A DNA stretch of 60,804 nucleotides, taken from positions 1 through 60,804 of IMG/VR virus record IMGVR_UViG_3300048592_000232. The stretch is one strand, 5' to 3'. The DNA comes from a virus. Below the pieces are notes generated by a model. It had not been told where the DNA came from. It made no database searches and worked only from the letters and a program-made list of their open reading frames with translations. Both the position numbers and the translations under genes were made by a program. Shown in pieces: positions 3,037-53,020 of the stretch (within the stretch, counting starts at the first letter, position 1; each line of letters begins with the position of its first letter).

Positions 3037-4494
3037 TTAGCGCGTCACGATCTGGGTGACGTTCCCGCCTTCGACCCAGATCGTGGCATGGCGCTTGAGG
3101 AATGCGTTGACCTTGACGATGTCGTAGTCGTCGCCGGTCAGCATGTCAACCGTGACGGCGACGAACTCTTGCAGCCGCTCAACCCGGTTGGCAACGTCGG
3201 CGTGTGTTGCCTGGTTGCGCCGGGCGATCAGTTGCAACTCTGCGTTGCGTTGCTGATTGCGGATGCGCGTCATGTGCGCTTGAAATTCTTCCAGGTCGAG
3301 AATGCCGTCAGTGTAGGCGCGTGTGAGCCGGTCTCGCTGCTGGGTCAAATCCTGCAAGGCAGTTTCAAGCTCTGCGATCTCTTTTTCGATTGGCGCCGTG
3401 TCTTGACGCAGCGACTCAATCATTGAGTCGTAGGTTTCCCGCCTTCTGATCTCGCCGATGTAGAGCAGAAGTGCAAAGGTAACGGCGCTTTCCCCGATCA
3501 GCGTCTTCGTGCACCTCTCCGCTTGGTTGCGCCGGTTGCTGCACACGTAGATGCGATCCGTGCGTCCGTAGCCTGCATTGTGAATGTGTTTGCGACCGTT
3601 CGACGCCAGCCGGCCTCCGCACTGCTGGCAGCGCAGGATGCCGCTGTACAACGCTGGCGACGAAACCGAACGCCTAGCCTCACTGCGTCGCGCTCGTTCG
3701 CTCTCGACTTCCTGCGCGGTGTCTTCGCTGACGATGGCTTCCCAGACGCCGCGGTTGCGCATGGGATCGTGCTTCTTGCTTTTCAGCCGGTACTGCGCAT
3801 AGCCCGCATATGTCCAAATCGTGTTGATGACATGTTCTGCCGTGCTGATCCCGATGCCTAGTTCCGTGGCGATCTTGCGCAGAGATAGCCCCTCGTACAG
3901 GTACAACTCGACGATGCGCTTGACCGTCTGCGCCTCTTGCGCATGGATCACATAATCGCCGTCGCCCTTTTTGCGGTAGCCAAACGGTGGGCGACCCGGC
4001 ATTTTGCCTGCCTTGATTCTGGCTTCCATACCAAAGGCGTGGCGCTTGCGCAGGTTGATCAGCTCCATCTGCAAGAAAAGACCTTCAATGCCGTAGGTGA
4101 TTTGCCCGCCAATCGACATGGCTTGTTCGTTGGCGTCAAGGGACTGCGGCGGCGAAGAACGCAAGTAGATGGCGCACCCGTTGGCGTGGCAGATGTCGAT
4201 TACCTGGCTGGCGAGCGCCGTCCTCCTGCCGAGCCGAGACAGGTCACGGGCGATCAGGATGTCAGCCGCGCCAGCCTTGACCATCTCACGCAGTTGGCGG
4301 TAGGCGAGAATGTTCGTTTCGGCGTCTACGAACTCCGTGTACTCTCTTGATTGTCCCGGCACATCCAGCACGGCAACAATCTCCGCGCCGATTTTGCGCG
4401 CGGCGGCTTCGTTCTCGCGGCGCTGTTCGTCGGGTGACTCCTTCTCCGCTTGTGGTCTGCTGGACACTGCAATCCAGGAAATTGCACGGCGCAT
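3037..4494 (-). CDS. int: Large serine recombinase (integrase)
   Basis: 485 residues, typical of large serine phage integrases that insert the genome at attB and, with a directionality factor, excise it. The resolvase catalytic domain starts IAVSSRP, with the nucleophile at Ser11 or Ser12, and has the arginine motif DLSRLGRR. The recombinase domain follows (GYRKKGDGDYVIHAQEAQTV), then a zinc ribbon (CQQCGGRL and VCSNRRNQAERC) and a coiled coil near residues 370-430 that usually controls synapsis. The gene lies between the RHH gene and the repressor and is separated from the repressor by a terminator. attP is normally close to the gene, but its core cannot be defined from one sequence. No directionality factor was recognised. 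Confidence 0.93.
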   Translation of the reverse strand: MRRAISWIAVSSRPQAEKESPDEQRRENEAAARKIGAEIVAVLDVPGQSREYTEFVDAETNILAYRQLREMVKAGAADILIARDLSRLGRRTALASQVIDICHANGCAIYLRSSPPQSLDANEQAMSIGGQITYGIEGLFLQMELINLRKRHAFGMEARIKAGKMPGRPPFGYRKKGDGDYVIHAQEAQTVKRIVELYLYEGLSLRKIATELGIGISTAEHVINTIWTYAGYAQYRLKSKKHDPMRNRGVWEAIVSEDTAQEVESERARRSEARRSVSSPALYSGILRCQQCGGRLASNGRKHIHNAGYGRTDRIYVCSNRRNQAERCTKTLIGESAVTFALLLYIGEIRRRETYDSMIESLRQDTAPIEKEIAELETALQDLTQQRDRLTRAYTDGILDLEEFQAHMTRIRNQQRNAELQLIARRNQATHADVANRVERLQEFVAVTVDMLTGDDYDIVKVNAFLKRHATIWVEGGNVTQIVTR

Positions 4495-6048: not shown

Positions 6049-6102
6049 TATCACTCTCAGCAATAATAAATGCTTGACATTTACCAGCACAAGTGATAAT
6101 CT
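6049..6102 (+). promoter_or_regulatory. Helicase promoter with two operators
   Basis: TTGACA 6074-6079, 17 nt, TAATCT 6097-6102. The operator TACCAGCACAAGTGATA (6082-6098) lies in the spacer and overlaps the first two -10 bases, the same register as at 2143, 10295, 56413 and 58596. A weaker site, TATCACTCTCAGCAATA, is at 6049-6065. Confidence 0.8.
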
Positions 6103-6125
6103 GTTCTCTGCAAGGAGACAGAGAA

Positions 6126-8993
6126 ATGGTCACACTACGTGAATATCAAAAAGAGGCACGTGATGCCGTGTGTACGGCATGGGCGGAAGGGACGCACAGC
6201 GTCATTGTCGTGCTTCCCACGGGAATGGGCAAATGCTTGGGATGGCAGGAAGACGTATTTCTAGGGAACGGCAGTATCGTTCCTGCATACACACTTGTCG
6301 GCAAGACGGTTGACGTTATCGGAGTGACGGATACTGAGACGATGCAAAAGGTTTCAGTATCTGCAACGTTCACGGATAACGGAATCCGGGATGTGTATCG
6401 AGTCACGTTTGATAATGGTACTTCGATCATACGGACGGCAGAACACCCGTTGTGGACTGCGCGTATGAAAAAATACCACGTAAACGCGCAGACGGGGAAG
6501 GATTGCACGGTTCCGATTGACGCGGGTTGGGTGCAGACAAAAGATATTCTGCCCACCGGGAATCGTCGGGCGTATTACGATATGGGACACGTTGTTTTGT
6601 CCCCTGTCGGACTTCCCATGAAGGGATACGAAGTAGACCCAGATATTGTATTTCTGGCTGCGTTATTCTTTGCTGAAGGCGCGTTGTCAAATGGCGATGC
6701 AAGATTCTCTACTTCTGACCCCGAAACACTAGAACGCGCCCGCGTCATTGCAGCACGATATGGATGCAGGGTGCAACATATCGCAAACTACGATTATGCC
6801 CTGAGACTAGAAAACGGCACGCGTAATCCTATTACAAAGATTCTGAAGGAATGGGGCATGTGGGGGAAGCGCGCCGAACAAAAAACAATCCCCTCAGAGA
6901 TTATGCAAGGGGACGATCAAACAATCGCCCTGTTTTTGCGTCACCTTTGGGACATGGACGGATGGTATTCGTTCCAGCGGGACACCGCCAAAGCTCCGCA
7001 GATTGGTATAGCACTCGCCACAAAAGAGGGGGTTGAACAAGTCTCAAAACTCGCCCATCGCCTGGGAATCGTCGGTGGTCGAATCCGCTATCAAAAAAAT
7101 GAGAAACGCGGTGCATATCGATGGGTATCGAGCGAAGTAGAAAAATGGCAACAGATTATCGGCGCGAACGTCAAAGCGCAAAATCTTGCGGATTGCGTAA
7201 CGCATAATCAGGCACGAATCGAGGGGCGAAAATCTGAATGGCTTGCATGGCGCACGGCGCGCACGGATGGCAAGTTTGCAGATTGCCCGGAAGGGTATCG
7301 ATGGCTGAAAGTCGTTTCGGTCGAAGCGTTGCCCCCTCAGTCCACCGTGTCTATCGAGGTACATAACGACAATCATGCCTTCCTGGGATACGCGGTCGAG
7401 CATAACACGCATCTGCTGCTTTCTGTATTGGCGGCAGAGCGGGACGGCGGACAGTTAGGTCGAGCAATCATCCTGGCGCATCGCAAGGAGTTGATTGACC
7501 AGCCTGCCAGACGCATCGAAGAATTCTTCCTGGGACAATTGCCCATCCCCGGCATTGTCATGGGTGGGCGCAACGATGCCGGTGCGGAAGTCATCTGCGC
7601 GACCGTGCAGACGCTGTCCAGAGAGCGCCGTTTACGGGAAGTGCTGAGACATGGCCCCGTCACGCACCTTATCATTGATGAGGCGCACCATGCCGCCGCG
7701 AGCGGCTACGTCGAAGTCATCGAGCACTTGCGCAGCGTCAATCCCCATCTGCGCATCTTGGGCGTCACTGCGACCCCGAACCGATCCGACGCAGCGGCTT
7801 TGACCGTCTTCGACAAGCAGGTCTATAAGAAGACGATCAAGGATGCCATCCACAACTACAAAGTGCTGGTGCCTTTCGTCGCGATGGGAATCAAACTCCC
7901 GGTTGACATCAGCCGGGTCAAAATCCAACAGGGCGACTACAGCGCGGGCGAGCTTGGCAGCGTCATGGACGTTGCCAACGCCAATGACATCATTGTCGAG
8001 ACGTGGAAGAAGCACGCCAGCGACCGCCTGACGATGGCATTCACAGCCACCGTAGCACACGCCAAGCACCTGGCCGAGGCATTCCAGGATCACGGCGTCC
8101 GGGCGGAATGGGCGTCAGCAGACACGGCGAAAGAAGACCGAGACGCCATGCTGAAACGCTTCGAGCGTGGCGAAACCCGTGTTATTGTCAACTGCGCTTT
8201 ATTCACGGAGGGGTTAGATGTCCCCAACATCTCCTGTGTCCTCATGGCACGCCCGACGCAGAGCAATACCGTCTACACTCAGGCGGTCGGGCGTGGACTA
8301 CGGACGTTTCCCGGCAAAGAGAACTGCCTGATCCTTGACTTCGTGCCGACCAGCAACAAGAGCCTGTTGACCGGCAATGCGTTGCTGGAAGGCAAGCCGC
8401 TGGAACAGAGAAAGGCCGAAGACGCTGCGATGAAGCAGGGAACCATCCTGGAAGTCATCGGGATGGACATTCAGGGGAACGGCATTGACGCCGATCCGGA
8501 CACGGTTGTCATGCAAGCGTTGAACCTGCTAGGCAGTGCGCCGCTCGCATGGACATTCGACGGCAAGTTAGCGACGGCGGGTGGCGGGCAGAATTTGACG
8601 CTTGTCATTGTGTCGCCGCAGGAAGACAGAGTTGCAAAGGCGCAGCAACTCAAGGCGGCGGGGCAATGGAAGCCGGAATGGGACGCCAGCTTCGAGCGCA
8701 TCTCTGCCTACTCCGTCTACGCCGTCAACGGCAGCGTGTCGCACATCGGCAGTGTTGCGGAGTGGAGCGGCGCGGTGGAAGTGGCGCAGGACTACGTCGA
8801 GGAATACGGCGATCCCATGCTTGCCCGCAAATCGAAAAGTTGGCGCGGCGACGCGGCGACAGCAGGACAGCGCGGCATGATGAAGCGTCTCGGCGTCCCC
8901 TACAAGCCCGGCATGAGCAAAGGCGAGGCCTCACAAGCCATCGCTCACAAAATGGCCGAAATTGAACTCAAGAAAGTGGGCATACTGGCATGA
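6126..8993 (+). CDS. SF2 DNA helicase (ResIII/RAD25-like) with intein
   Basis: The 955-residue precursor contains a 391-residue intein (37-427), so the mature helicase is 564 residues. N-terminal LREYQKEARDAV is a Q-like motif. The Walker A is split as PTGMGK at residues 31-36 and T428 after splicing. LIIDEAHHAAASG is the DEAH box, VTATPNRSD motif III, and QAVGRGLRTF motif VI. It should unwind DNA with ATP during replication or recombination. ATG 6126 follows AAGGAGACAGAGAA; the upstream in-frame start lies in the promoter region and was rejected. The C-terminal KPGMSKGEASQAI region resembles a short DNA-binding tail. The stop overlaps the next start by 4 nt. Confidence 0.92.
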   Translation: MVTLREYQKEARDAVCTAWAEGTHSVIVVLPTGMGKCLGWQEDVFLGNGSIVPAYTLVGKTVDVIGVTDTETMQKVSVSATFTDNGIRDVYRVTFDNGTSIIRTAEHPLWTARMKKYHVNAQTGKDCTVPIDAGWVQTKDILPTGNRRAYYDMGHVVLSPVGLPMKGYEVDPDIVFLAALFFAEGALSNGDARFSTSDPETLERARVIAARYGCRVQHIANYDYALRLENGTRNPITKILKEWGMWGKRAEQKTIPSEIMQGDDQTIALFLRHLWDMDGWYSFQRDTAKAPQIGIALATKEGVEQVSKLAHRLGIVGGRIRYQKNEKRGAYRWVSSEVEKWQQIIGANVKAQNLADCVTHNQARIEGRKSEWLAWRTARTDGKFADCPEGYRWLKVVSVEALPPQSTVSIEVHNDNHAFLGYAVEHNTHLLLSVLAAERDGGQLGRAIILAHRKELIDQPARRIEEFFLGQLPIPGIVMGGRNDAGAEVICATVQTLSRERRLREVLRHGPVTHLIIDEAHHAAASGYVEVIEHLRSVNPHLRILGVTATPNRSDAAALTVFDKQVYKKTIKDAIHNYKVLVPFVAMGIKLPVDISRVKIQQGDYSAGELGSVMDVANANDIIVETWKKHASDRLTMAFTATVAHAKHLAEAFQDHGVRAEWASADTAKEDRDAMLKRFERGETRVIVNCALFTEGLDVPNISCVLMARPTQSNTVYTQAVGRGLRTFPGKENCLILDFVPTSNKSLLTGNALLEGKPLEQRKAEDAAMKQGTILEVIGMDIQGNGIDADPDTVVMQALNLLGSAPLAWTFDGKLATAGGGQNLTLVIVSPQEDRVAKAQQLKAAGQWKPEWDASFERISAYSVYAVNGSVSHIGSVAEWSGAVEVAQDYVEEYGDPMLARKSKSWRGDAATAGQRGMMKRLGVPYKPGMSKGEASQAIAHKMAEIELKKVGILA
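6234..7406 (+). mobile_element. Intein with LAGLIDADG-type homing endonuclease
   Basis: Inserted exactly between Lys and Thr of the helicase P-loop (GMGK / T). Cys37 is the first residue, the terminal dipeptide is His426-Asn427, and the +1 nucleophile is Thr428. Splicing blocks: CLGWQEDVFLGNG (block A), IIRTAEHPLWTA (block B with the TxxH-like motif), and HAFLGYAVEHN (blocks F/G). Two endonuclease helices are visible, LAALFFAEGAL and LRHLWDMDGW, with Glu and Asp as likely catalytic acids. Base composition is visibly more AT-rich than the flanking helicase, consistent with recent acquisition. Confidence 0.92.
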
Positions 8994-10171
8994 GTGATTT
9001 TGACGTAGAGGCTGCGCTTGATAGTGCGGCGCTGGCGGTGGATGCAGAGATTAAAAAGGCTGACGCGGGCGTATTGGGCAAAGCCTGGCAGGTGCGCAGT
9101 TTTCGGGATGCGTTCCAGCCTCGACCGCCGCTGCTCTACGTCGTGGACGGCCTGCTGGCCGCACCGTCGCTCAACATCTTCTATGGCGCACCCGGCAGCA
9201 TGAAATCGATGGTGCTGGCAGACCTGGCCGTCTGCGTTGCGCTGGGTGTGCCCTTCCTGCATTCCATCGAGGGGCAGCTTGGCAAGCCCGGCAGGACGTT
9301 CCGCACAGTGCGCAGTCCGGTGCTTTGGGTGGATATGGACAATGGGAAGCGACGCACCGACGTGCGCTTTGACGCCCTGGGCAGGGCGCACGGTGCGACC
9401 GTGGACGATGCGCAGTTGCAGTACATCTCGATGCCGTCACCGCACTTCAATGCCAGCAACGGCGAATTTATGAGCTACCTGGAAACGTTCATCCGGGCAA
9501 ACGAGCACCGGTTAGTTGTCATAGACAACTTGGGTCTCAGCATCGGTGACGCCGACGAAAACAAAGCGGAGATGGCGACAGTCATGCGCAACTTCAAGTA
9601 CGTTGCCGAAAACACGGCAACGTGCATCGTCATCATCCATCACCCGCGCAAAGGCGGCGCGGCGGAAGGCGTTCGGTTGGGCGACACCATGCGCGGACAC
9701 AGCACCATCGAGGCGAGCCTTGACGCCGCCTTCTACGTGGATCGGCTGGAAGGCAAGGACGCAATCAGTGTGGTTCCGGTCAAGGTGCGCGAGTACCGCA
9801 TTGACCCGTTTGGCGCCCTTTTCGCCTACGAGCATCGGGAAGGAACCTATGACTTGCAGACCGCGCGCTTTTTCAGCCAGTCGGTTGACTCGCCTGACGA
9901 AATGCGCAGAACGTTGGTACAGGACGCAATCCTGACTGTCGTCTTGCACTCCGGTACGGAAGGCATAGAACGCGGCGAGCTTTACGACGCCGTGCAGGGC
10001 AAAATGGAGGGACCACTCAAGATGAAATCGCCGGGTCGAAATGCCATCCGGGGACAACTGACCGTTTTGTGTGAAACCGGCATGATTGACGAGGTCAAAG
10101 AAGGACGCCGGTACATCTACATCCTAACTGAGAGCGGCTGGCCGGAAGCGCAGCGCCGCAAAGTTGGCTAG
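8990..10171 (+). CDS. RepA-like hexameric AAA/RecA ATPase
   Basis: 393 residues. Walker A is YGAPGSMKS, Walker B VVIDNLGLS, and IVIIHHPRKGG resembles the sensor/H4 region of plasmid RepA and KaiC-like ATPases. A C-terminal winged-helix-like segment follows (GELYDAVQGKM, then LCETGMIDEVKEGRR). It is likely a replicative helicase or loader. It overlaps the SF2 helicase by 4 nt and is followed by a hairpin, so the two form one operon. The lesion-bypass or recombination ATPases of this fold are an alternative. Confidence 0.82.
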   Translation: MSDFDVEAALDSAALAVDAEIKKADAGVLGKAWQVRSFRDAFQPRPPLLYVVDGLLAAPSLNIFYGAPGSMKSMVLADLAVCVALGVPFLHSIEGQLGKPGRTFRTVRSPVLWVDMDNGKRRTDVRFDALGRAHGATVDDAQLQYISMPSPHFNASNGEFMSYLETFIRANEHRLVVIDNLGLSIGDADENKAEMATVMRNFKYVAENTATCIVIIHHPRKGGAAEGVRLGDTMRGHSTIEASLDAAFYVDRLEGKDAISVVPVKVREYRIDPFGALFAYEHREGTYDLQTARFFSQSVDSPDEMRRTLVQDAILTVVLHSGTEGIERGELYDAVQGKMEGPLKMKSPGRNAIRGQLTVLCETGMIDEVKEGRRYIYILTESGWPEAQRRKVG

Positions 10172-10176
10172 TCATT

Positions 10177-10196
10177 CACGGCGGGTTTACGCCGTG
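10177..10196 (+). terminator. Hairpin after the RepA-like gene
   Basis: CACGGCG and CGCCGTG form a perfect 7-bp stem with a 6-nt loop 5 nt after the stop codon. A second small hairpin follows (CACTTC/GAAGTG). The U-tract is poor, so termination may be partial. Confidence 0.5.
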
Positions 10197-10243
10197 CACT
10201 TCTTGAAGTGGCCTCCATAACCCGTCCAGCAATGACACTCACC

Positions 10244-10315
10244 TATTACCTGAAATGATAAATACCAGTTTAGGCGTAATGAATACTTGACATTTATCAT
10301 CATGTGTGATAAATT
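10244..10315 (+). promoter_or_regulatory. Promoter of the 10.4-kb operon with two operators
   Basis: TTGACA 10287-10292, 17 nt, TAAATT 10310-10315. TATCATCATGTGTGATA (10295-10311) is a perfect-armed operator in the spacer. A second site, TATTACCTGAAATGATA (10244-10260), lies upstream. No coding sequence lies in 10172-10375. Confidence 0.82.
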
Positions 10316-10375
10316 TAGCTTGTACAGATATTCAGAGCGAATCGACAGATTCTTTTCAATTGTAAAGGAGACATC

Positions 10376-10831
10376 ATGGAGAAGACAAACGGCTACACGG
10401 CACAGGTTTCACCCTGGAGCACATTGCAGGGTGAATTGATCGATGCGTTTGATGGTCTTGATCAAGCCAACTATCGTCTCGCCGATGCGTTGGGTGAACA
10501 GGCGCGTGCGCTGGTGGCGCTGGACGCGGCCAAGCAGGTTGCGGAGGATGTTGAGTCTGAGTTCACAGGCGAGATCATGTTCTCCCTGGAGTTTCAGGAC
10601 AACAAATCCATCCAGAAGAACGCAGAGTCTCGCAAGGCGTACATGGACTTGCGGCTCGTGCGGGCACGCAAGCCCGGCGGCGTGATGTACTACGCTGCCG
10701 AGGCATTGACGAAGGCAAAAGAGGATCGGCTATTGGCCGACAACGAAGTCGAGCTTGCCAAGCGGCAGGTGCTGGCAATCCAGGCGAAGATTGACGCACT
10801 GTCGAGCCTTGTTCGTGGATTGAGCGCATGA
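10376..10831 (+). CDS. Hypothetical coiled-coil protein, 151 residues
   Basis: First gene of the operon from the promoter at 10287. A long alternating charged/hydrophobic pattern (ADALGEQARALVALDAAKQ, and a C-terminal AKRQVLAIQAKIDAL) predicts coiled coil. No catalytic motif was seen. By position before the SSB-like gene it may be a recombination or replication accessory, but this is only context. Overlaps the next gene by 4 nt. Confidence 0.7.
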   Translation: MEKTNGYTAQVSPWSTLQGELIDAFDGLDQANYRLADALGEQARALVALDAAKQVAEDVESEFTGEIMFSLEFQDNKSIQKNAESRKAYMDLRLVRARKPGGVMYYAAEALTKAKEDRLLADNEVELAKRQVLAIQAKIDALSSLVRGLSA

Positions 10832-11022
10832 GCTTGACCACGGGCGACACGGCGAATCGTGGACAGCTTGCCGGTTGGGACAAGTTCCTGGCTGGCAAGC
10901 CCATCACCGAGTGTGCAACGCAGGAGGAACGCAACGGATGGTTAGCTGCTTTCTCCTGCTATGACGACAACTTTTCAGAGACAACTCAGAAGGAAACGAA
11001 CAATGACAACAGCACTCAGTAG
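10828..11022 (+). CDS. Hypothetical protein, 64 residues
   Basis: Starts at ATG 10828 inside the previous stop and extends 20 nt past the next start. Polar and Asn/Thr-rich at its C-terminus (TTQKETNNDNSTQ). Contains GWDKFLAGKPITECATQEER. Not recognised; probably translationally coupled. Confidence 0.55.
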   Translation: MSLTTGDTANRGQLAGWDKFLAGKPITECATQEERNGWLAAFSCYDDNFSETTQKETNNDNSTQ

Positions 11023-16924: not shown

Positions 16925-17809
16925 ATGGAGAACACAAAGATCGAGTGGGCGCATCACACGTTTAACCCGTGGATTGGATGCGCAAAGGTGTCGGATGGTT
17001 GCCGGTTCTGCTACGCCGAAGCATTCGCCAGGCGCTACAACAAGGCCGAATGGGGACCAGCCGCGCAGCGCATACGCACCAGCGACGCCTACTGGCGCAA
17101 ACCGTTGTCGTGGAATCGGAAAGCCAAGCAAGAAGGCCGGCGCTATCGGGTGTTCTGCGCATCGCTGGCCGATGTCTTTGAGGATAAAGCCGAACTTGAT
17201 ACCTGGCGTCATGACCTCTTTCTTATAATTGAGCAGACACAGTCGCTTGATTGGCTTTTACTTACCAAACGACCAGAAAACGTGGCGACCATCATCGAGC
17301 GCCATGTTCCACAGGGAATTGCAAACTACTTCGATCTCAATCCGCACGTCTGGATCGGTGCGTCAATCGAAAACCAGGAGCAGGCAAACAAGCGTATCCC
17401 CCATCTGTTGGAAATACCTGCACGAGTACGCTTTCTAAGCATGGAACCACTGCTCGACCCAGTAGACCTAACCCCATGGGTAAACAGTTGCCCCAGTTGC
17501 GGCGCGCATCGCAAGGATAGCCTCCCAAATATCAGTTGTGGCTACTGCGAAGAACAACCACGCGTCCGTGGCCTCCAGTGGGTCATCGTCGGCGGCGAGA
17601 GTGGCGCCAAAGCCCGCCCAATGCGTGAAAGTTGGGTACGCTCCATTCTCAATCAATGCCAAGTATCGGCAACGCCATTCTTCTTCAAGCAATGGGGAGA
17701 ATGGGCGCCAACAGATCACTCTCCGACAGTAACCGACGTAATGAATCGCGTCGGAAAAACCGCAGCCGGACGCCAACTCAACGGGCGCACATGGGACGAA
17801 ACGCCATGA
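16925..17809 (+). CDS. DUF5131 (phage Gp37/Gp68) family protein
   Basis: 294 residues with the family hallmarks in order: TKIEWAHHTFNPWIGC, the three-Cys cluster GCAKVSDGCRFCYAE, CASLADVFE, WLLLTKRPEN, WIGASIENQEQ, FLSMEPLLDP and VIVGGESG. A second CxxC pair (CPSCGAH, CGYCEE) interrupts the C-terminal half. The family is often annotated as radical-SAM-like but its reaction is unknown. Unlike the 60.3/0.8-kb paralogue it has no N-terminal helical domain and no TcmP-like neighbour. ATG 16925 after AGGAGAGACTGAC. Confidence 0.9.
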   Translation: MENTKIEWAHHTFNPWIGCAKVSDGCRFCYAEAFARRYNKAEWGPAAQRIRTSDAYWRKPLSWNRKAKQEGRRYRVFCASLADVFEDKAELDTWRHDLFLIIEQTQSLDWLLLTKRPENVATIIERHVPQGIANYFDLNPHVWIGASIENQEQANKRIPHLLEIPARVRFLSMEPLLDPVDLTPWVNSCPSCGAHRKDSLPNISCGYCEEQPRVRGLQWVIVGGESGAKARPMRESWVRSILNQCQVSATPFFFKQWGEWAPTDHSPTVTDVMNRVGKTAAGRQLNGRTWDETP

Positions 17810-20011: not shown

Positions 20012-20053
20012 CTGCGACGCGTGCGTGGAACAGATGAAGGAGGAAAGGAAACA

Positions 20054-21388
20054 ATGGCTAAAAAATCATATTTGACTGTCACTGATCAGTTTTGCGGTGC
20101 GGGCGGTTCCAGTATCGGAGCCACCGCAACCGGTGTTGAATTGCGGGTGGCGCTCAATCACTGGCAACTTGCCATCGAGACACACAACAGCAATTTTCCA
20201 AACGCGCTACATGATTGCACCGACATCTCGGCCTGCGATCCGCGCCGCTACCCATCGACGGACATCCTGATTACCAGCCCGGAATGTACCAATCATAGCT
20301 TGGCGAAGGGAAAGCGCAGGCACAGCCAACCCGATCTATTCGGCGCGAACGTGCCCGACCCGGCAGAGGAACGCAGTCGAGCGACCATGTGGGACGTGCC
20401 CCGCTTTGCGGAGTATCATCGCTACAATGCCATCATCGTCGAGAACGTAGTCGATGCGAAACACTGGGTCACATGGGACGCCTGGCTGCACGCCATGCAG
20501 TTGCTTGGCTACGAGCACCAGATCGTCTTTTTTAACAGCATGTTCGCATGGCCGACGCCGCAGTCGAGAGATCGCATGTACGTGGTCTTCTGGCGCAAGG
20601 GCAATGCACGACCTGACCTCGACTTCCACCCGGCTGCGCACTGCGAGAGGTGCGGCAAGACTGTCGAGAGCGTCCAGTCCTGGAAGCGCCACGGGCAACG
20701 GTGGGGCCGCTACGGTGCGCAATACGTCTACCGCTGTCCCACCTGCGCCGCCGAGGTCAAGCCGTTCTACAACCCCGCTGCTAGCGCCATCGACTGGACG
20801 CTGCCCGCCCCGCGCATCGGAGACCGCAATAAGCCGCTTAAAGGGAAGACGGTTGATAGAATCCAAAAGGGGTTGGACAAATACGGAAGGCGAGAATTGA
20901 TCGTCGATACATCATTTGGCGACGGAGATCGCGCGTCGTTGGTGTCCGAACCACTGCGAACACAGACGACGCGTCAGACGATGGCGCTTATCATGCCCTA
21001 TTACAGCACCGGCGTCGCCAGGCCAACCAGCGAGCCAATTCCGACCGTAACAACGACCGACCGGCACGCGCTTGTAGTGGCGCCTCCGTTCATCCTCGGC
21101 TACTATACGCGCGTATCTGGCGTTCGGGCTGCAATCAGCGGAGTCAATGAGCCTATGCCGACGCAGAGCACGCAGCCGCGTCATTACTTGGTACAGCCGG
21201 GCGGCGTGCCATCTGTCGAGGATTGCGGCTTTAGAATGCTGCGTCCGCACGAGATTCACAACGCGATGGCGTTCCCCTCCGATTATAAAGTCCTCGGCAA
21301 CAATCGCGAACAAGTGCGGCAACTGGGTAACGCAGTCACGCCGCCAGTGATGAAACTGCTCGTTGAGCGTGTGGTGAGGGCACTATGA
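20054..21388 (+). CDS. DNA (cytosine-5) methyltransferase
   Basis: 444 residues. Motif I is DQFCGAGGSS (11-20, S-adenosylmethionine binding). Motif IV is LITSPECTNHS with catalytic Cys78 in PEC rather than the usual PCQ. Motif VI is IVENVVDAKH (ENV at 130-132). QLGNAVTPPV near the C-terminus is motif X. A zinc-ribbon-like insert (CERCGK and CPTCAAE) follows motif VIII. It should methylate C5 of cytosine in a specific site, protecting phage DNA; no cognate endonuclease is adjacent. ATG 20054 follows GAAGGAGGAAAGGAAACA. Overlaps the next gene by 4 nt. Confidence 0.93.
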   Translation: MAKKSYLTVTDQFCGAGGSSIGATATGVELRVALNHWQLAIETHNSNFPNALHDCTDISACDPRRYPSTDILITSPECTNHSLAKGKRRHSQPDLFGANVPDPAEERSRATMWDVPRFAEYHRYNAIIVENVVDAKHWVTWDAWLHAMQLLGYEHQIVFFNSMFAWPTPQSRDRMYVVFWRKGNARPDLDFHPAAHCERCGKTVESVQSWKRHGQRWGRYGAQYVYRCPTCAAEVKPFYNPAASAIDWTLPAPRIGDRNKPLKGKTVDRIQKGLDKYGRRELIVDTSFGDGDRASLVSEPLRTQTTRQTMALIMPYYSTGVARPTSEPIPTVTTTDRHALVVAPPFILGYYTRVSGVRAAISGVNEPMPTQSTQPRHYLVQPGGVPSVEDCGFRMLRPHEIHNAMAFPSDYKVLGNNREQVRQLGNAVTPPVMKLLVERVVRAL

Positions 21389-22539
21389 GAAACCAAACGT
21401 CATTCTTTGAGGACATGCGCCTGACACTCGAAGACGCCATCGGCCTAAGCGTCGCCAGCCTGAACGAATACGGGCAACGGTATCGACACTGGGCGATTGC
21501 CTACAGCGGCGGCAAGGACAGCACGGCAACAGTTGCGTTTGTGGCGTGGGCGATTCGCACCGGGCTGGTGCCTGCTCCGGCGTCGCTGACCGTGCTCTAT
21601 GCAGACACGCGCATGGAGCTACCGCCGTTGCAGCAAAGCGCCATGCAGTTGCTGTCAGCATTGTCGGCGCAAGGAATCAGCACGCAGGTCGTGTTGCCGA
21701 AGATGGCGGACAGATTTTTCGTTTACATGCTTGGTCGTGGCGTTCCACCACCAAGCAACACGTTCAGATGGTGCACACCGCAACTCAAGATCGAGCCGAT
21801 GCACGCAGCATTAGCCGACTTACGCCAGCGGCACGGCGAAAAGCTGTTGATGTTGACTGGCGTCAGAATGGGTGAATCGGCGGCGCGTGACCAGCGAATT
21901 GCATTGTCATGCTCAAAAGATTCCGGAGAATGCGGGCAAGGATGGTTTCAGGTCGCCACGCCTGACAGCATGGCAGACACGCTTGCACCGCTTCTGCACT
22001 GGCGATTGTGTCACGTGTACGACTGGCTCTATTTCGATGATCGGCACGGCTATGACGCTTCTGGAATCGCAGCAATCTATGGCGAGGATGATGTGCGAAC
22101 TGGGTGCGTTGGATGCAATCTTGCCAGCCGTGACAACGCGCTAGAACGCCTGCTGCGCCGGCCTGAGTGGTCGCACCTGGCGCCGCTGTTGGAATTGCGC
22201 CCGCTTTACGCTGAACTGAAGCTCGCAAAAAACCGCAAACGCAAAGCCGAACCGGAACTGCGCAAGGACGGCACATTTGCAACGAACGTACAGCGTCTCG
22301 GCCCGCTGACAATGGATGCGCGTCGCTATGGACTTGACCGAGTGTTGGACATTCAGCGGCGCGCCGGCGTTGACCTGATCAATGATGAAGAGATCGCTCG
22401 CATCTTGGAATTGATCGCCGCCGACACCTGGCCGAACAAATGGAGTGGTGACGACATCGCTGGCGACAAGATGCTTGACGCAGTGAGCGTCACAACATTG
22501 GGCGATCTTGTGACGCAACCAATCCTGGTGCACCTATGA
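21385..22539 (+). CDS. DndC/PAPS-reductase-like ATP pyrophosphatase
   Basis: 384 residues of the adenine nucleotide alpha-hydrolase fold. The PP-loop is YSGGKDSTATV (S41-T47). Other landmarks are TRMELPP, FRWCTPQLKIEPM (Cys130), LTGVRMGESAARDQR and GCVGCN (Cys241/244). The combination fits DndC-like proteins, which activate sulfur for DNA phosphorothioation, better than classical PAPS reductase. No DndA, B, D or E is present, so it would have to act with host proteins or perform another nucleobase or backbone modification. Overlaps the C5 methyltransferase and the next gene by 4 nt each, implying coupled expression. Confidence 0.78.
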   Translation: MRNQTSFFEDMRLTLEDAIGLSVASLNEYGQRYRHWAIAYSGGKDSTATVAFVAWAIRTGLVPAPASLTVLYADTRMELPPLQQSAMQLLSALSAQGISTQVVLPKMADRFFVYMLGRGVPPPSNTFRWCTPQLKIEPMHAALADLRQRHGEKLLMLTGVRMGESAARDQRIALSCSKDSGECGQGWFQVATPDSMADTLAPLLHWRLCHVYDWLYFDDRHGYDASGIAAIYGEDDVRTGCVGCNLASRDNALERLLRRPEWSHLAPLLELRPLYAELKLAKNRKRKAEPELRKDGTFATNVQRLGPLTMDARRYGLDRVLDIQRRAGVDLINDEEIARILELIAADTWPNKWSGDDIAGDKMLDAVSVTTLGDLVTQPILVHL

Positions 22540-22766
22540 ACTACTACATCTTCGACCGTGTACCGGGCTACCATCCAAAATACACGTTTGCGGTGTTGGC
22601 CGTCAACGCCAACGATGCACGGCAGTGGATGCGCAACGTCAACAAAGGCGGTGTGCTGATTCGCACGATCACAAGCGGCGAGGTAAAGGCCGACATGGGC
22701 GCATTGACCACAGCAGCAGAACACGTCATCAGGGAGAAGCGAGAACTTGAGGAAGGGGAGCTATGA
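22536..22766 (+). CDS. Hypothetical protein, 76 residues
   Basis: Lies between the DndC-like and Mom-like genes with 4-nt overlaps on both sides. Contains YIFDRVPGYHPKYTFAVLAV and a C-terminal charged helix. Not recognised; may be a small partner of the modification cassette. Confidence 0.55.
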   Translation: MNYYIFDRVPGYHPKYTFAVLAVNANDARQWMRNVNKGGVLIRTITSGEVKADMGALTTAAEHVIREKRELEEGEL

Positions 22767-23422
22767 CACACGAACTCCGTCTCGACCTGGGCGACCGCAA
22801 CGATCTCACCTGGGCGCAGCGCATCGTCACCAGCTACCACTACCTGCGCCGCCCCGTTGACCCGCGCGCACGCCCGATGGTCTACATCGTGCGTCACGAT
22901 GCTGACACGTACCAGCGTCCCCTCGGTCTGATCATGCTCGGCATTCCGCACGCCACACGCTGCACGGGCTGGTGGGGCTATCCCGGCCTGCCGACACAGT
23001 GGCAGGTCGTGGACTTGTGCCGCATTTGGATTGACCCGGATTTGCAACCTGGTGGACGATGGTGCGACCCGTACACCGTCCCCGGCTTCTACGACCGCTG
23101 CGGCAAGTTTCGCCCGACTACACCAACATGGGCGATCAACGAGGTGCTACAGCGCGTGCAGGCTGACCGGGTGCGCCTGTGGCCTCCGGTCTATTTGGAC
23201 CAGCCCTATCACATCCGGCTCGCCATCTCGTATCATGACCCGCACTACCACCGCGGCACCATCTACCGGCACAGCCACGCCACGCCGATGTACACCGACG
23301 CAACCGGCAACCCGATCCCCGGCTCGTCTGGTAAGTTCGGCTGGTGCTGGCCTCTGCCCGCGCCGGCCTGGGAATGGTGCAACCTGGCGGATTTGCGGGC
23401 AAGACAGATCAGGATGATATGA
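22763..23422 (+). CDS. Mom-like (GNAT-fold) DNA modification protein
   Basis: 219 residues. The order of landmarks matches Mom-like phage proteins: an N-terminal IVTSYHYLRRPVDP, a strand LGLIMLGIP, VVDLCRIWIDP, then LAISYHDPHYHRGTIYRHS near the C-terminus, equivalent to the family pattern ISYxDp-x-G-x-IYr. Mu Mom adds a methylcarbamoyl group to adenine N6 to block restriction. The chemistry here is unknown. It is the last gene of a tightly overlapped cassette with a C5 methyltransferase and a DndC-like protein and is followed by a hairpin. Confidence 0.6.
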   Translation: MTHELRLDLGDRNDLTWAQRIVTSYHYLRRPVDPRARPMVYIVRHDADTYQRPLGLIMLGIPHATRCTGWWGYPGLPTQWQVVDLCRIWIDPDLQPGGRWCDPYTVPGFYDRCGKFRPTTPTWAINEVLQRVQADRVRLWPPVYLDQPYHIRLAISYHDPHYHRGTIYRHSHATPMYTDATGNPIPGSSGKFGWCWPLPAPAWEWCNLADLRARQIRMI

Positions 23423-40248: not shown

Positions 40249-43200
40249 CTAGCCATTCCTGTCAATCACTTGCTTGATTCGATAAGCAAGTCGCTCTATG
40301 TCTACGTCGTTCGTTACGGTCGCATGTACCGTGACGCTGACGGGATTGCCGGTCAGCATTCCTTGCATTTCCCGATTGTTGTACACCTGACTGCCGCGCG
40401 GCAGGCCGACCAACTCCGGCCCATTCTCGCCAACCAACGTCAAGCCGCCCGGCGCAAACGAGGTGCCGAGACGATTCCCGCCAAACAGATCATTCCACGC
40501 CTGCCCAGCGCCACCGATGGCGTCGTTGACCGCTTGACCGGCCTCACCAACGGCCTCCTGCGCACCTTCTACCGCGGCACCGATACCGGTCACGTTGCCA
40601 AGTTCAGCGATGATACCGGCGATCATGTCCTGGAGGGCTTTCAGGACTGCGCTGCCGAGGTCGTTGAACGCACCGCCGATCATGTCCCACTTGATGGACG
40701 TGATCGCATTACGCACAGCCGCCGTGAAGCCGCCCCAGGAGATGCCGCCGCCGCCTTCCTCACCGCTGCCGCCAATCATGGACGCCAACGCGCTCACCAT
40801 GTTCTTGCCGAGCGCCGACCAGTCCATCGTCTTGATTTTCTCACCAAGCGAATCCACCATAGCGACGAAGTCCCACGATGCCGCTGTCCAGTCAACTGCG
40901 CTGATCGCCCCGGCCACGCCGTCAACGATTCTCTGATCCAGCCCCTGCATGGTCGTGTCAATCTGCGTCCACAGCCCCGCCATTGCGTCGGTCAGGCCAG
41001 CCCCTTCGTTGAAGCCAGCCCACAGCCCGGTAATGGCGCCCAGGATGGCGTCACGTAGCCCAACGAACGATTCACCGATGCTGGCAAAGTCCAGGTCAGT
41101 GATCGCCTGCTCAATCGACATGCGCAGCCCGTTGAAAGCGAATGCCTCCCCTTCGGGCGTAGAGGACTCACCAAACAGCGCCCCGATGCCATCCACGATG
41201 GACTTGACGAAGTTCCCAAAGCTGAAACCTGCGCCCGCCCAATCAATCTCGTTGATGTATCCGGTGATCGAATCGATGAAACTCTGGACGGACAACCCCG
41301 CCGCCTTCCAGTCAATCGAATTGACGGCCATCGTCGCCGCCATGGCCAGCTTGGTGCGCAGTGCGGAGAAGCCATCCGCCGACCACTCGAAGCCATTCAG
41401 CGCAAACTGAATCGAGTCAGCGATGCTCTGCAAATCCAGTGCGGCGACAACGTCCTTCTTGAGTTGCTCGAAGGCGTCGCCCGTGAACAGGGCTTTGAGC
41501 GTCTCGCCCATTTTGGCGATCTCCTCACCCATCGTTGCGCCCAGGTCGCCAAACGAGATTTCACCCGCCATGAACTGCTGGAAGGTTTCCCAAATTGCCG
41601 CAATGTTGCCCTTCACGCTTTCAGCATTGGCCAGCCACGAACCGAACGCCTCCGAGATGGCCGCAATCTTGCCCTGTACGCCGCCCAGGTCGAGGTACCA
41701 GATCGCCGCACCCAACGCCACGATAGCGCCGATCACCAGCACAACCGGAGAGGTCAGCGCCGCCAATGCCGCCGATAAGCCGCCGATCACTGGACCCGCC
41801 AGCCACGCCAGCATCTTGGCGAACGTGCCTACTGCCATCAAGCCGGGACCAATCGCCGCAACAACGCCTGTCAGCAGCAGGATTACCCGCTGCATGGCCG
41901 GTGACAGGTTGGTGAAGGAGGAAATTAGATCCGCCGCCTGCCGAATCATGTCGGAGATGCCGCCCAGGAACGGGTAGACTGCTGCGATCAGCGTCGATTC
42001 GAGCGAACCTTTGAAGTACTCGATTGCACCTTTCAGGCCGTCCATCTTCGCACCCGCCATCGCAGCCGCTGCACCCTGCTCGCCGACAGCGCCCACCATC
42101 GCGGCAATATCTTCCTCGGATTGATTCAGCAGGATGGACAGTGCGCGCACCGCGTCAGCGCCGCCAAGCGTGCTTAGCATGGCGTTGCGCTCGGCCTCCG
42201 TGTATTCCTTCATCACGGTGGTTGCTGTGCCTTGAATGCCTGCCAGGGAGTTGTATTCCGCCTGCATCGCGGCAAGTTCACGGTTCAGCCGATCCACCGC
42301 GACGATCTTGTCGTTCTCACTCTGCGCAACGCCTGCAATGCCGCTTGCGTAGTCGGAAAGTTTTGTGTTGACGCCCTGAATCCGCTTTTGCAGATCGGCC
42401 ATACGATCCGCCTGCTCCTGCGTGCGCCCACCCGAAACAACCGTTACCTCATTCAGCCCGTACAGGCTGGAACGCATGTCGTTGATTACGTCGAACAGCG
42501 GGCGTGCCTTCCCTTCGGCGTCGTAGGCAGAGATGCCAAGCTGCTGCATGATGCCAGCCGCTTCATCTGTCGGCGCATACAGGCGCATCATCGCTGTCTT
42601 GAGCGAAGTGCCTGCATCGCTGCCTCTCAGGGCGTTGTCGTTGAGAAGGGCGAGCGCCGCCGTAGTGGTGCCAAGCGACTGCCCGAAGGTGTTGGCGACG
42701 GCGCTTGACATCTGCATCCCCATACCCAGGTCAGAGATGTCAGCCGCCGACGAAACCGCCGCCGCTGCCAGCATGTTGGCGACTTCTCCCGACGCCGAGG
42801 CGTCCATGTTGAAGGCTTTCAGCGTTTTGGCGGTCAGCGATGCCGCCTGATCCAGACTCATGCCCGAAGCCGCCGCCAAATCAAGCACACCGCCGATACT
42901 CGCCATTGTCTGCGATGCGTCGAAGCCCGCTTTGCCAAGCTCGACCATCGCTTGCGCTGCGTCGCCTGCTGAGAAGCTGGTGACGGCGCCGAGGCGCAGC
43001 GCCTCCGCTTGCAGCGCCTGCAAGTCACCCTCCGTCGCGCCGGCAACGACGGCAATCGTGTTCATCGCTTGCTCGAATGTACCCGCGGAATTGAGCGCCA
43101 CCGCGCCCATGCCGACGATGGGAGCCGTGACCGCAAGGGACATCTTCTGTCCGATGCCGGTCACGGAATCGCCGAAGGATTGCAGCTTTTCCTTTGCGCC

Positions 43201-43266
43201 ATTGAGGGCACGCTCTAGCGACTGCGCATTGCCGAGGATGTTGATCGCAATCGTTGCTGTGGACAT
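40249..43266 (-). CDS. Tail tape measure protein
   Basis: 1005 residues from ATG 43266. The N-terminal ~400 residues show the phage tail tape measure TP901 pattern (MNTIAVVAGATEGDLQALQA, LGAVTSFSAGDAAQAMVELG, QAASLTAKTLKAFNMDASAS). Hydrophobic helices near 440-545 (VILLLTGVVAAIGPGLMAVG, VVLVIGAIVALGAAIWYL) are the membrane-active region often seen in these proteins. It sets tail length, here suggesting a tail of about 150 nm by the usual length relation. Starts at the end of the tail chaperone gene. Confidence 0.93.
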   Translation of the reverse strand: MSTATIAINILGNAQSLERALNGAKEKLQSFGDSVTGIGQKMSLAVTAPIVGMGAVALNSAGTFEQAMNTIAVVAGATEGDLQALQAEALRLGAVTSFSAGDAAQAMVELGKAGFDASQTMASIGGVLDLAAASGMSLDQAASLTAKTLKAFNMDASASGEVANMLAAAAVSSAADISDLGMGMQMSSAVANTFGQSLGTTTAALALLNDNALRGSDAGTSLKTAMMRLYAPTDEAAGIMQQLGISAYDAEGKARPLFDVINDMRSSLYGLNEVTVVSGGRTQEQADRMADLQKRIQGVNTKLSDYASGIAGVAQSENDKIVAVDRLNRELAAMQAEYNSLAGIQGTATTVMKEYTEAERNAMLSTLGGADAVRALSILLNQSEEDIAAMVGAVGEQGAAAAMAGAKMDGLKGAIEYFKGSLESTLIAAVYPFLGGISDMIRQAADLISSFTNLSPAMQRVILLLTGVVAAIGPGLMAVGTFAKMLAWLAGPVIGGLSAALAALTSPVVLVIGAIVALGAAIWYLDLGGVQGKIAAISEAFGSWLANAESVKGNIAAIWETFQQFMAGEISFGDLGATMGEEIAKMGETLKALFTGDAFEQLKKDVVAALDLQSIADSIQFALNGFEWSADGFSALRTKLAMAATMAVNSIDWKAAGLSVQSFIDSITGYINEIDWAGAGFSFGNFVKSIVDGIGALFGESSTPEGEAFAFNGLRMSIEQAITDLDFASIGESFVGLRDAILGAITGLWAGFNEGAGLTDAMAGLWTQIDTTMQGLDQRIVDGVAGAISAVDWTAASWDFVAMVDSLGEKIKTMDWSALGKNMVSALASMIGGSGEEGGGGISWGGFTAAVRNAITSIKWDMIGGAFNDLGSAVLKALQDMIAGIIAELGNVTGIGAAVEGAQEAVGEAGQAVNDAIGGAGQAWNDLFGGNRLGTSFAPGGLTLVGENGPELVGLPRGSQVYNNREMQGMLTGNPVSVTVHATVTNDVDIERLAYRIKQVIDRNG

Positions 43267-43978
43267 TACTCCCACCCCATTTCGGCGGCTAAATCTTCAA
43301 ACTTCTGCATGTTGGCGTGCCGCTTGATACTCGATTCGTCGTGCAGTTGCTGCCTGCCAGACCAGTTGACAAGGAAGTCATCAACCTTGAATCGAGCCTT
43401 GCCGCCACCCATCGCAGCGAATCCGTTGGCGATTGTCGTCATGACCATAGCCGCCAACGCGTCGCCCCGCTCACCGCCAAGTGGTCCAAACTCAGCCTCA
43501 TACGCCTGCCAGGAAGTCAACTCAGCCGACGAGATGTTGCTCAGCCCCCACTCGACTGACGGCCAGCCAAGCGCCAGGGCTAATCGGTGATAGAATCGTC
43601 GCCCTGGTCGGCGAAAAAATCTTCCGCCGCCTTCTCTTTGGCTTCCTCACCAATGCCGCTCAACCGTTGCGCGACCTTGGCGACACGCTCCAGCGCCGAC
43701 GCGGACTTGCGTCCCAGCCTGGCAACATCGGCGTCCGTGAAGATGCGCTCGCCCTTTTCGTCAACCACGCACAGGCTCACCAGCCGTGCACGCATGTTGA
43801 CCATGTTGACTTCAATCTCGCCCTTCGCACCGCGCTTGATCGACATCTGCTCGAAGGTGTCTCGTTCCTTGCCGGTCAGCGCACGCACGCGCACGTTGCC
43901 GCCCCACTCCGGGACAGTGACGATCTCGGCGACCATATCGTCCGCGTCAAAGATTGCATTCCGTGAAAGTAGTGTCAT
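43266..43978 (-). CDS. Tail assembly chaperone GT, made by -1 frameshift
   Basis: The downstream frame (43266-about 43612, containing RLALALGWPSVEWG and LTSWQAYEAEFGPLG) has no start or ribosome site of its own. It joins the upstream chaperone in the -1 frame at the slippery heptamer T TTT TTC (minus strand, 43619 to 43613). The fusion would be 122 residues of G plus 115 of T, about 237 in all. The T part has the W-x-x-Y...GPL-x-x-xR-x-D pattern of lambda-type T proteins. It recruits tail tube subunits to the tape measure. Confidence 0.8.
43580..43978 (-). CDS. Tail assembly chaperone G
   Basis: 132 residues, the zero-frame product. Contains WGGNVRVRALTGKERDTFEQ and ALERVAKVAQRLSGIGEEAK, the pattern of phage tail assembly chaperones that precede the tape measure. 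The slippery T TTT TTC lies at codons for Phe-Phe (EDFFADQG), 10 codons before the stop, so most ribosomes make G and a minority make GT. ATG 43978; 8 nt from the tail tube gene. Confidence 0.82.
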   Translation of the reverse strand: MTLLSRNAIFDADDMVAEIVTVPEWGGNVRVRALTGKERDTFEQMSIKRGAKGEIEVNMVNMRARLVSLCVVDEKGERIFTDADVARLGRKSASALERVAKVAQRLSGIGEEAKEKAAEDFFADQGDDSITD

Positions 43979-52250: not shown

Positions 52251-53020
52251 ATTGACCGTCCTCTCACGGGCCCCGCATCACCGATGACTTCCAAGTGTCG
52301 AGGCTGGCAGATCGGGCACACCCGATCATCTACTACCGTGTACCAGACATAAGACAGCCGCCCGCTTTCCTGCGCCACGCCCACGAAGCAGCGACACCCA
52401 GGGTGTGCGGGGGGCCTGTCCGCTGGGCGCGGCGCCAGCCCGATGGCCTCGTAGTAGTCGAACGCTCCTTCGGTGAAAGCAAAGGTTGATTCCGTGACGG
52501 CGATCAGCTTGGCGCGCTCAAGGCCGAACAGGCCCGGCGCTTGCAGCCGGTCGCGCAAATCGCTGATCGGCGCACCGGAGGCAATCCATGCCGCAATTTC
52601 ATCACGCAATCTTTGCCGTGTCGTCTCGTTGATGCGCGTCACCAGCGCAGCGGAGTACTGTTCCGCCCAGCGTATCGCCCACTCGTGACGATACGCCCCA
52701 TAGCCCGGCATAGTTGGCCACGCCGCCGCCGCCAACTGAGACCCGCCGACAGCCGCATCGACCAACAATCGAAGCAGCGCAATTTGCAGCACGTCAGACT
52801 GCGCATCCACCGAACGCAGCGCCGCGCCCACGTCGAAGCCGACGCCGAGCAACACATCACCCGGCGATAACACGATGCCAGCCTCCATCGTCGCCAGCGC
52901 GCCGGCCACCTCCCGCGTCCCTTCCGCTGCGTAGCCGTCCAGGACACTCTGCCACTGCGCCGGGTCGATCAGCAGGCTATCTTCACGGATACGTTGCCCA
53001 GCGGCGTAGAAATTCCGCAT
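52238..53020 (-). CDS. Phage head morphogenesis protein (Mu F-like)
   Basis: 260 residues from ATG 53020 (AGGAGGCAAAGGTCA), overlapping the portal gene by 38 nt. AKLIAVTESTFAFTEGAFDY, PPAHPGCRCFVGVAQ and the late VDDRVCPICQPRH are the signature of the Mu gpF/SPP1 gp7 family, with its His-x-x-Cys-x-Cys zinc-like site. It assists portal incorporation. The longer upstream frame mirrors the portal repeats and was rejected. Confidence 0.85.
   Translation of the reverse strand: MRNFYAAGQRIREDSLLIDPAQWQSVLDGYAAEGTREVAGALATMEAGIVLSPGDVLLGVGFDVGAALRSVDAQSDVLQIALLRLLVDAAVGGSQLAAAAWPTMPGYGAYRHEWAIRWAEQYSAALVTRINETTRQRLRDEIAAWIASGAPISDLRDRLQAPGLFGLERAKLIAVTESTFAFTEGAFDYYEAIGLAPRPADRPPAHPGCRCFVGVAQESGRLSYVWYTVVDDRVCPICQPRHLEVIGDAGPVRGRSIWTL

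What the first reader, a model, noticed from the sequence alone, without database searches (positions are those of the whole stretch)
20054..23422. Compact DNA-modification cassette: C5 methyltransferase, DndC-like ATPase, Mom-like acyltransferase
Four genes overlap by 4 nt each: cytosine-5 methyltransferase, a PP-loop protein with DndC landmarks, a 76-residue protein and a Mom-like protein. I know no standard system combining these. The phage may hypermodify DNA at more than one position, or the DndC-like protein may feed sulfur or another group to the Mom-like enzyme. Orphan DndC without the other Dnd genes suggests a new use. The likely purpose is broad resistance to restriction.
Basis: partly seen in the sequence, partly recalled or inferred. 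Interest (0 to 1): 0.82.

Follow-up and report, generated by a model that had tools for sequence, protein, structure and literature searches.

The report
Phage DNA-modification stack with stand-alone DndC-like enzyme
A temperate phage (probably of Chloroflexota bacteria) carries four tightly joined genes: a cytosine methyltransferase, a relative of the sulfur-transfer enzyme DndC, a small protein and a distant relative of the phage Mu DNA modifier Mom, which together most likely disguise its DNA from restriction, and the DndC relative belongs to a phage clade that is also found in cyanobacterial DNA-sulfur loci.

Summary
Window 20054-23422 holds a C5 cytosine methyltransferase, a DndC-like PP-loop protein, a 76-aa protein and a Mom-like protein, each overlapping the next by 4 nt (ATGA). 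Mom homology is confirmed by profile comparison (hhalign 97%, E 7e-11) and fold. The DndC-like protein keeps the PP-loop and RWCT/GCxxC cysteines of DndC along its length, but falls far below the DndC cut-off and forms its own clade ('DndC2'; PHROG 12882) in phages and prophages. DndD and DndE are absent from the window. DndC2 genes cluster with DNA methyltransferases (19 of 37 phages within 1 kb; 1.8 expected). This Mom clade carries a DndC-like gene in 8 of 22 other contigs, in several gene orders; two DndC2 phages also carry DpdA. Yet each enzyme also occurs without the others, so the idea that DndC feeds Mom is not supported. Unexpectedly, one cyanobacterial branch of DndC2 lies in chromosomal dnd loci (26 of 31), beside DndCDE and/or the phosphorothioation-associated methyltransferase TIGR04096; none of 130 other loci has these genes. 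Best reading: a stacked anti-restriction DNA-modification cassette in which DndC2 is probably a Dnd-independent sulfurtransferase. Its product is unknown and directly testable.

The parts
20037..20043 (+). Ribosome-binding site AAGGAGG of the first gene
   Evidence: sequence
20054..21388 (+). C5 cytosine DNA methyltransferase (P0001) with a zinc-ribbon-like insert; motif IV reads SPEC; C-terminal EP-x-PT repeat modules
   Evidence: PF00145 9.6e-27, phrog_116 1.4e-62; motifs; full-length relatives about 50% identical in 201 phage records
21385..21388 (+). ATGA overlap, C5 MTase / DndC-like
21385..22539 (+). DndC-like PP-loop ATP-pyrophosphatase (P0002, 'DndC2', phrog_12882); SGGKDS loop and invariant C130, C176, C183, C209, C241, C244
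22536..22539 (+). ATGA overlap, DndC-like / 76-aa protein
22536..22766 (+). 76-aa protein of unknown function; homologs lie directly upstream of the mom-like gene in L002, L013/L187 and L188/L189
   Evidence: no family match
22763..22766 (+). ATGA overlap, 76-aa protein / Mom-like
22763..23422 (+). Mom-like DNA-adenine acyltransferase (P0004); H26-Y27, D84-L-C-R87, S156-Y-x-D159, G165-x-x-Y168 match Mom landmarks
   Evidence: hhalign 97%, E 6.7e-11 to the Mom family; GNAT fold and Mu Mom 8bv8 in fold searches
16925..17809 (+). DUF5131 protein (weak radical-SAM similarity), recurrent neighbour of DndC2 and Mom genes; possible member of the wider island, not of the four-gene unit
   Evidence: PF07505 1.6e-85, PADLOC PDC-M41B/M30B, TIGR04471 3e-10; neighbours

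Best explanation
The four genes are one translationally coupled early operon that stacks separate DNA-modifying enzymes, so that the phage genome resists several kinds of host restriction. The C5 MTase methylates cytosines at its sites. The Mom-like enzyme adds an acyl-derived group to adenine N6. The DndC-like protein (DndC2) is an ATP-pyrophosphatase with a probable Fe-S site; it activates a target by adenylation and transfers sulfur taken from a host cysteine desulfurase, most likely onto DNA, without DndD/DndE and possibly with the methyltransferase as its DNA-targeting partner. Shown here: gene identities, overlapping arrangement, recurrence of the associations, kinship to DndC. Inferred: enzymatic activities, DNA as DndC2's substrate, anti-restriction as the purpose.
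For: Gene identities. DndC2 matches Salmonella DndC colinearly along its length, including RWCT and GCxxC (E 1.3e-43); six cysteines are invariant in 39 diverse relatives. Clustering with C5 or N6/N4 MTases: 19 of 37 phages within 1 kb, 1.84 expected from random placement, never reached in 20,000 draws. The Mom clade carries a DndC-like gene in 8 of 22 other contigs, in different orders: C5-DndC2-76aa-Mom, MTase-DndC2-76aa-Mom, MTase-Mom-DndC2, Mom-DndC. In L003 (C5 76% and Mom 76-77% identical to the window) a different DndC-like protein directly follows Mom. Two DndC2 loci also hold DpdA, a DNA-deazaguanine enzyme (L184, and L035's record 1.3 kb from DndC2). Cyanobacterial DndC2 lies in dnd loci.
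Against: No activity is measured. DndC2 lacks the partners that canonical DndC needs and scores 118 bits against a 290-bit DndC cut-off. PP-loop enzymes of the same fold act on RNA and small molecules (TtuA, NcsA, TilS, GMP synthetase). Stacking could reflect a shared genomic niche rather than cooperation.
Confidence: 0.55

Rival explanations
1. DndC2 does not modify DNA but RNA or a small molecule, like TtcA/TtuA/NcsA, TilS or FAD synthase; it lies beside MTases because early phage regions collect host-takeover genes.
For: Fold search returns PP-loop enzymes acting on RNA and nucleotides: GMP synthetase, TtuA, NcsA, TilS, LarE; FAD synthase is the only sequence-profile hit in the PDB.
Against: Sequence similarity is far stronger to DndC than to those families; MTase clustering is well above random placement on the same contigs, though that control does not allow for early-region clustering; the cyanobacterial copies sit in dnd loci.
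Confidence: 0.18
2. DndC2 is a counter-defence protein: a DndC mimic that disturbs, or borrows, the host's phosphorothioation system so that PT-sensing defences fail.
For: It resembles DndC but lacks its partners in the phage; DndE/DndD-bearing cyanobacteria hold a DndC2 in the same locus.
Against: PP-loop and all putative Fe-S cysteines are invariant, as for an active enzyme; 130 non-cyanobacterial DndC2 loci, 49 of them bacterial, have no dnd genes nearby, though a distant host dnd locus was not looked for.
Confidence: 0.14
3. DndC2 supplies sulfur or an activated group to the Mom-like enzyme, which adds a thiolated or otherwise new group to adenine.
For: Direct adjacency of Mom and DndC-like genes in several gene orders; a different DndC-like protein in the same place in L003.
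Against: 14 of 22 other contigs with this Mom clade have no DndC-like gene, including L002 whose Mom is 91% identical; most DndC2 phages have no Mom. Some contigs are fragments.
Confidence: 0.07
4. An ordinary, loosely assembled set of orphan phage genes with no common role; the order in the window is accidental.
For: Each gene occurs alone: this C5 MTase in 201 phage records, DndC2 without Mom, Mom without DndC2.
Against: MTase-DndC2 and Mom-DndC associations recur far more often than chance, on different branches of the DndC2 tree.
Confidence: 0.06

Closest known systems
Dnd phosphorothioation system (DndA/IscS, DndB, DndC, DndD, DndE)
   Same: DndC2 shares the PP-loop, FRWCT, GCxxC and C-terminal segment of DndC in the same order.
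   Different: DndC2 is about 384-400 aa against 543, below the DndC cut-off, a separate clade, and without DndD/DndE in the phage.
Phage Mu Mom (PDB 8bv8) and phrog_1384
   Same: Profile-profile similarity, HY motif, (D/E)LxR segment, SxxD...GxxY segment, GNAT fold.
   Different: Too divergent for single-sequence detection (E 0.031); long inserts after the (D/E)LxR segment and before SxxD; no Com homolog, but a different 76-aa protein overlaps its start.
Phage orphan 'PAPS reductase' / DndC-like genes (phrog_12882; Thermus phage Tsatsa, Rhizobium phage RR1-A, Pseudomonas phages Dobby and phiC725A)
   Same: Same family or superfamily; RR1-A and Dobby also have C5 MTase and DndC2 overlapping by 4 nt.
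   Different: Those phages show no annotated Mom gene; published notes leave the function open (PMC11437467, PMC13299392).
Cyanobacterial dnd loci with TIGR04096 putative methyltransferase
   Same: Contain a DndC2 of the same family beside a methyltransferase.
   Different: There it accompanies canonical DndC-DndD-DndE.
Phage 7-deazaguanine DNA modification (DpdA)
   Same: DpdA occurs in the same island as Mom and DndC2 in L184, and beside DndC2 in L035's record.
   Different: No DpdA in the window.

Membership tests
DndC (TIGR03183 equivalog) | Score above the curated cut-off (290.4 bits) | tested here: not met
   117.7 bits; a canonical cyanobacterial DndC scores 566
DndC (TIGR03183 equivalog) | PP-loop and Fe-S cysteines (RWC, GCxxC) | tested here: met
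   invariant in 39 relatives; align with Salmonella C146, C280, C283. The assignment of remaining ligands is not settled
Dnd phosphorothioation system | DndD and DndE present | tested here: not met
   no hit to TIGR03185 or TIGR03184 at E<=1 in the 60.8-kb record; the record may be incomplete
Dnd phosphorothioation system | Phosphorothioate in DNA | not testable with these tools
   needs LC-MS/MS or iodine cleavage
DndC2 / phrog_12882 | Full-length profile match | tested here: met
   4e-127 over residues 7-382
Mom family | Profile similarity to Mu Mom and relatives | tested here: met
   hhalign 97.1%, E 6.7e-11 over 139 columns; sister clade A4 96.3%, E 2e-9, and phrog_1384 7e-10
Mom family | Conserved HY, D and Y of the Mom alignment (H48, Y49, D139, Y149) | tested here: met
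   H26, Y27, D159, Y168; E98 is D84, N153 is not kept
Mom family | GNAT-type acyltransferase fold | tested here: met
   moderate model (pLDDT 68); GNATs at E 4e-4, Mu Mom 8bv8 E 4e-3, Mom of FSL SP-031 E 1.5e-4
Mom family | N6-acyl-type adenine modification | not testable with these tools
   needs nucleoside mass spectrometry
C5 DNA methyltransferase (PF00145) | Score over cut-off and motifs I, IV, VI, VIII, X | tested here: met
   94.7 bits against 22; catalytic Cys kept but motif IV is SPEC, not PPC

The most novel reading that the evidence does not exclude
DndC2 is a stand-alone DNA thiolation enzyme that needs no DndD/DndE and works together with a DNA methyltransferase (phage C5 or N6/N4 MTases; TIGR04096 in cyanobacteria), making a sulfur-containing DNA mark not yet described; cyanobacterial dnd loci took up this phage enzyme as a second DndC.
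Probability: 0.22. Interest if true: 0.88.

Novelty: new variant of a known kind. Interest (0 to 1): 0.66.

Why it matters
Phages evade restriction by chemically altering their DNA, and new enzyme families of this kind have led to new modifications. Here one operon stacks three different modifier types, one of which (DndC2) is widespread in phages, annotated only as 'PAPS reductase', and of unknown product. Its tight link to methyltransferases, its recurrence beside Mom and DpdA, and its nested place in cyanobacterial phosphorothioation loci turn a vague annotation into a testable claim that a Dnd-independent sulfur modification exists. Isolated phages (RR1-A, Dobby, phiC725A) make the test practical.

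Tried and rejected
Single-sequence PDB searches of P0002 and P0004 found nothing; profile searches found only FAD synthase for A2 and nothing for A1. tblastn of P0004 in 50,697 phage records: no match. A greedy longest-ORF gene caller misplaced genes in this GC-rich DNA and hid Mom in L003; replaced by a codon-model caller plus six-frame HMM searches. The codon-model caller itself misses some genes (it lost DUF5131 at 16925-17809), so neighbour lists are approximate. A control locus set from a DnaB query failed, returning only its own contig, so the Mom-DndC association has no matched control; instead, 20 of 50,697 phage records have any DndC-like match, and at assumed background rates of 0.04%, 1% and 5%, seeing at least 7 of 22 has P 3e-19, 1.5e-9 and 7e-5. 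RNA hairpin at the mom start, as in Mu: rejected, the region folds worse than shuffles (z +2.1); the start of the 76-aa gene does sit in a hairpin (z -3.0), not followed up. Considered and rejected: an R-M system (no nuclease in the cassette), a complete Dnd system.
Full report
1. What is there. The window is a 60,804-base virus record with a tailed-phage gene set: terminase 54422-55864, portal 52983-54425, tape measure 40249-43275, serine integrase 3037-4494, so probably temperate. In the rightward early region, 20054-23422 holds four ATG-started genes, each overlapping the next by ATGA. Many other early genes overlap the same way, so this shows co-translation, not a special partnership.

2. 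C5 methyltransferase. PF00145 9.6e-27 and phrog_116 1.4e-62. Motifs I (DQFCGAGG), VI (VENV), VIII (TPQSRDR) and X (QLGNAV) are intact; motif IV reads SPEC instead of the usual PPC, and SP[E/D]C is the commonest form among C5 MTases near DndC2 genes. Full-length relatives of about 50% identity occur in 201 phage records, mostly actinophages, so this enzyme does not depend on the others.

3. DndC-like protein. phrog_12882 4e-127; DndC models of NCBIfam (117.7 bits, cut-off 290.4) and PADLOC (1.1e-35). In 39 relatives the PP-loop SGGKDS, the RWCT motif and six cysteines (C130, C176, C183, C209, C241, C244) never vary. A profile of the family matches Salmonella DndC colinearly in two stretches (E 1.3e-43), aligning C130 with C146 and C241/C244 with C280/C283; C280 of DndC is reported as indispensable for its [4Fe-4S] cluster (PMC11662687). 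The predicted fold (pLDDT 85) matches PP-loop ATP-pyrophosphatases, including the Fe-S thiolases TtuA and NcsA. A tree places canonical DndC outside the family with 100% support (long branches, quick method). I call the family DndC2. No DndD or DndE is in the record.

4. Mom-like protein. Alone it gives only phrog_1384 at E 0.031. With nine relatives it matches a Mu Mom family profile at 97.1%, E 6.7e-11; a sister clade found in DndC2 phages hits phrog_1384 at 7e-10 and 2e-7 directly. H26-Y27, D84-L-C-R87, SYxD159 and G165xxY168 line up with Mom's H48-Y49, E98-L-N-R, SFAD139 and G146xxY149. The model (pLDDT 68) finds GNAT acyltransferases, a phage Mom and the Mu Mom structure 8bv8.

5. The 76-aa protein has no family match. 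Homologs lie directly upstream of the mom-like gene in L002, L013/L187 and L188/L189, with or without DndC2. It thus belongs to Mom rather than DndC2. Its place resembles that of Com before mom in Mu, but it has no cysteines and so cannot be a Com-type zinc finger.

6. Recurrence. (a) DndC2 and methyltransferases: of 50 viral contigs with DndC2, 37 hold a PF00145 or PF01555 match; in 19 it lies within 1 kb of DndC2 against 1.84 expected from random placement on the same contigs, and no draw in 20,000 reached it. Random placement does not allow for early genes lying together, so part of this may be regional. (b) Mom and DndC-like: scans with Mom sequences or profiles give, after merging near-copies, 22 other contigs; 8 hold a DndC-like gene, in the orders MTase-DndC2-76aa-Mom (L013), MTase-Mom-DndC2 (L053), DndC2...DUF5131-Mom (L018), Mom-DndC-like (L003), against C5-DndC2-76aa-Mom in the window. 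The profile of the second clade was built from DndC2-linked members, so its share may be somewhat inflated; scans with the window's own clade alone give 4 of 11 (L003, L182, L183, L184). On the DndC2 tree the Mom neighbours need 6 changes. (c) L003 is a close relative of the cassette (C5 76%, Mom 76-77%), yet carries a different, only 41% identical DndC-like protein directly after Mom, as if some DndC-type activity were wanted there. (d) L184 holds Mom, a DpdA-like protein (PF23859 1.3e-13) and DndC2 within about 4 kb; L035's record holds DpdA 1.3 kb from DndC2, with C5 and N6/N4 MTases further upstream.

7. An unexpected setting. A scan of bacterial genomes found DndC2 in Chloroflexota (closest to the window, up to 71%), Cyanobacteriota, Pseudomonadota and Bacteroidota. 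In 26 of 31 cyanobacterial loci it lies in a dnd locus, with DndD and/or DndE and/or the 'DNA phosphorothioation-associated putative methyltransferase' TIGR04096; none of 130 other loci (phage or bacterial) has any of these genes nearby. Identities were checked on representatives with NCBIfam: DndC 566 bits, DndD 596, DndE 124, TIGR04096 865, and a cysteine desulfurase. The eight of these copies put in the tree form one clade (99%) nested among phage sequences. This ties the phage family to DNA-sulfur chemistry by context, and again beside a methyltransferase.

8. Interpretation. The simplest account is a stack of independent DNA modifications in one early operon. Each enzyme also occurs alone, so a fixed pathway from DndC2 to Mom is unlikely. 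What DndC2 does is the open question: its active-site conservation argues for catalysis; its setting argues for DNA; the lack of DndD/DndE argues against ordinary Dnd phosphorothioation. I put 0.55 on the stacked anti-restriction account with DndC2 as a DNA-directed sulfurtransferase, and less on RNA/small-molecule or counter-PT roles.

9. Novelty. Orphan DndC-like or 'PAPS reductase' genes in phages have been noted without a function (PMC11437467, PMC12429752, PMC13299392), and Mom-like enzymes are known in many phages (PMC7824862). The open-access paper searches I ran gave no report of the C5-DndC2-Mom combination, the statistical link to MTases, or the second DndC in cyanobacterial dnd loci; subscription papers were not searched. 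I rate it a new variant of a known kind.

10. Limits. Contigs are often fragments, pattern scans miss divergent relatives, the Mom-DndC association lacks a matched control set, the Mom model is moderate, and no activity is measured. The host is inferred only from the nearest bacterial DndC2.

Noticed in passing
L109, L111, L113-L116, L118-L123, L125-L130, L132, L133, L137, L139, L150, L155, L157, L161: A phage-type DndC2 lies in cyanobacterial dnd loci beside DndCDE genes and/or TIGR04096; a small HARE-HTH protein sits next to it in several.
   Followed up: partly
window 20054-21388 and L003, L007, L038, L045, L085, L086, L103 and others: C5 MTases near DndC2 carry SP[E/D]C in place of the PPC of motif IV; the C-terminal half holds EP-x-PT repeat modules (3 in the window; L003 has about 64 more residues there), perhaps target-recognition units.
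   Followed up: partly
window 16925-17809 and 60301-60804 (partial, - strand): Two DUF5131 genes (the first with weak radical-SAM similarity and PADLOC PDC-M41B/M30B matches); DUF5131 recurs near DndC2 and close to Mom in L018 and L182.
   Followed up: partly
L184:4026-10049: Island with DUF4942/MTS methyltransferase, Mom, DpdA-like protein, DUF6610 and DndC2 in about 6 kb.
   Followed up: partly
L186:1345-8133: C5 MTase, N6/N4 MTase, Mom, a Vut_1-family (queuosine-precursor-transporter type) protein and a truncated DndC2 in one run; a 202-aa gene between them may be DpdA-like but gave no Pfam DpdA hit.
   Followed up: partly
window 6093-8993: DNA helicase with an intein-like splicing domain and LAGLIDADG endonuclease.
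   Followed up: no
window 22486-22595: The start of the 76-aa gene lies in a hairpin stronger than all 200 shuffles (z -3.0); possible translational control.
   Followed up: no
L005, L009 and L026, upstream of Mom or DndC2: Clusters with Prok-E2 (family D) and ThiF-like proteins; the two Pfam matches were made on L026.
   Followed up: no
L188/L189:5881-6681 and 10117-10851: Two Mom-like genes in one phage, with a D12 adenine MTase and DUF5131 between or near them.
   Followed up: no
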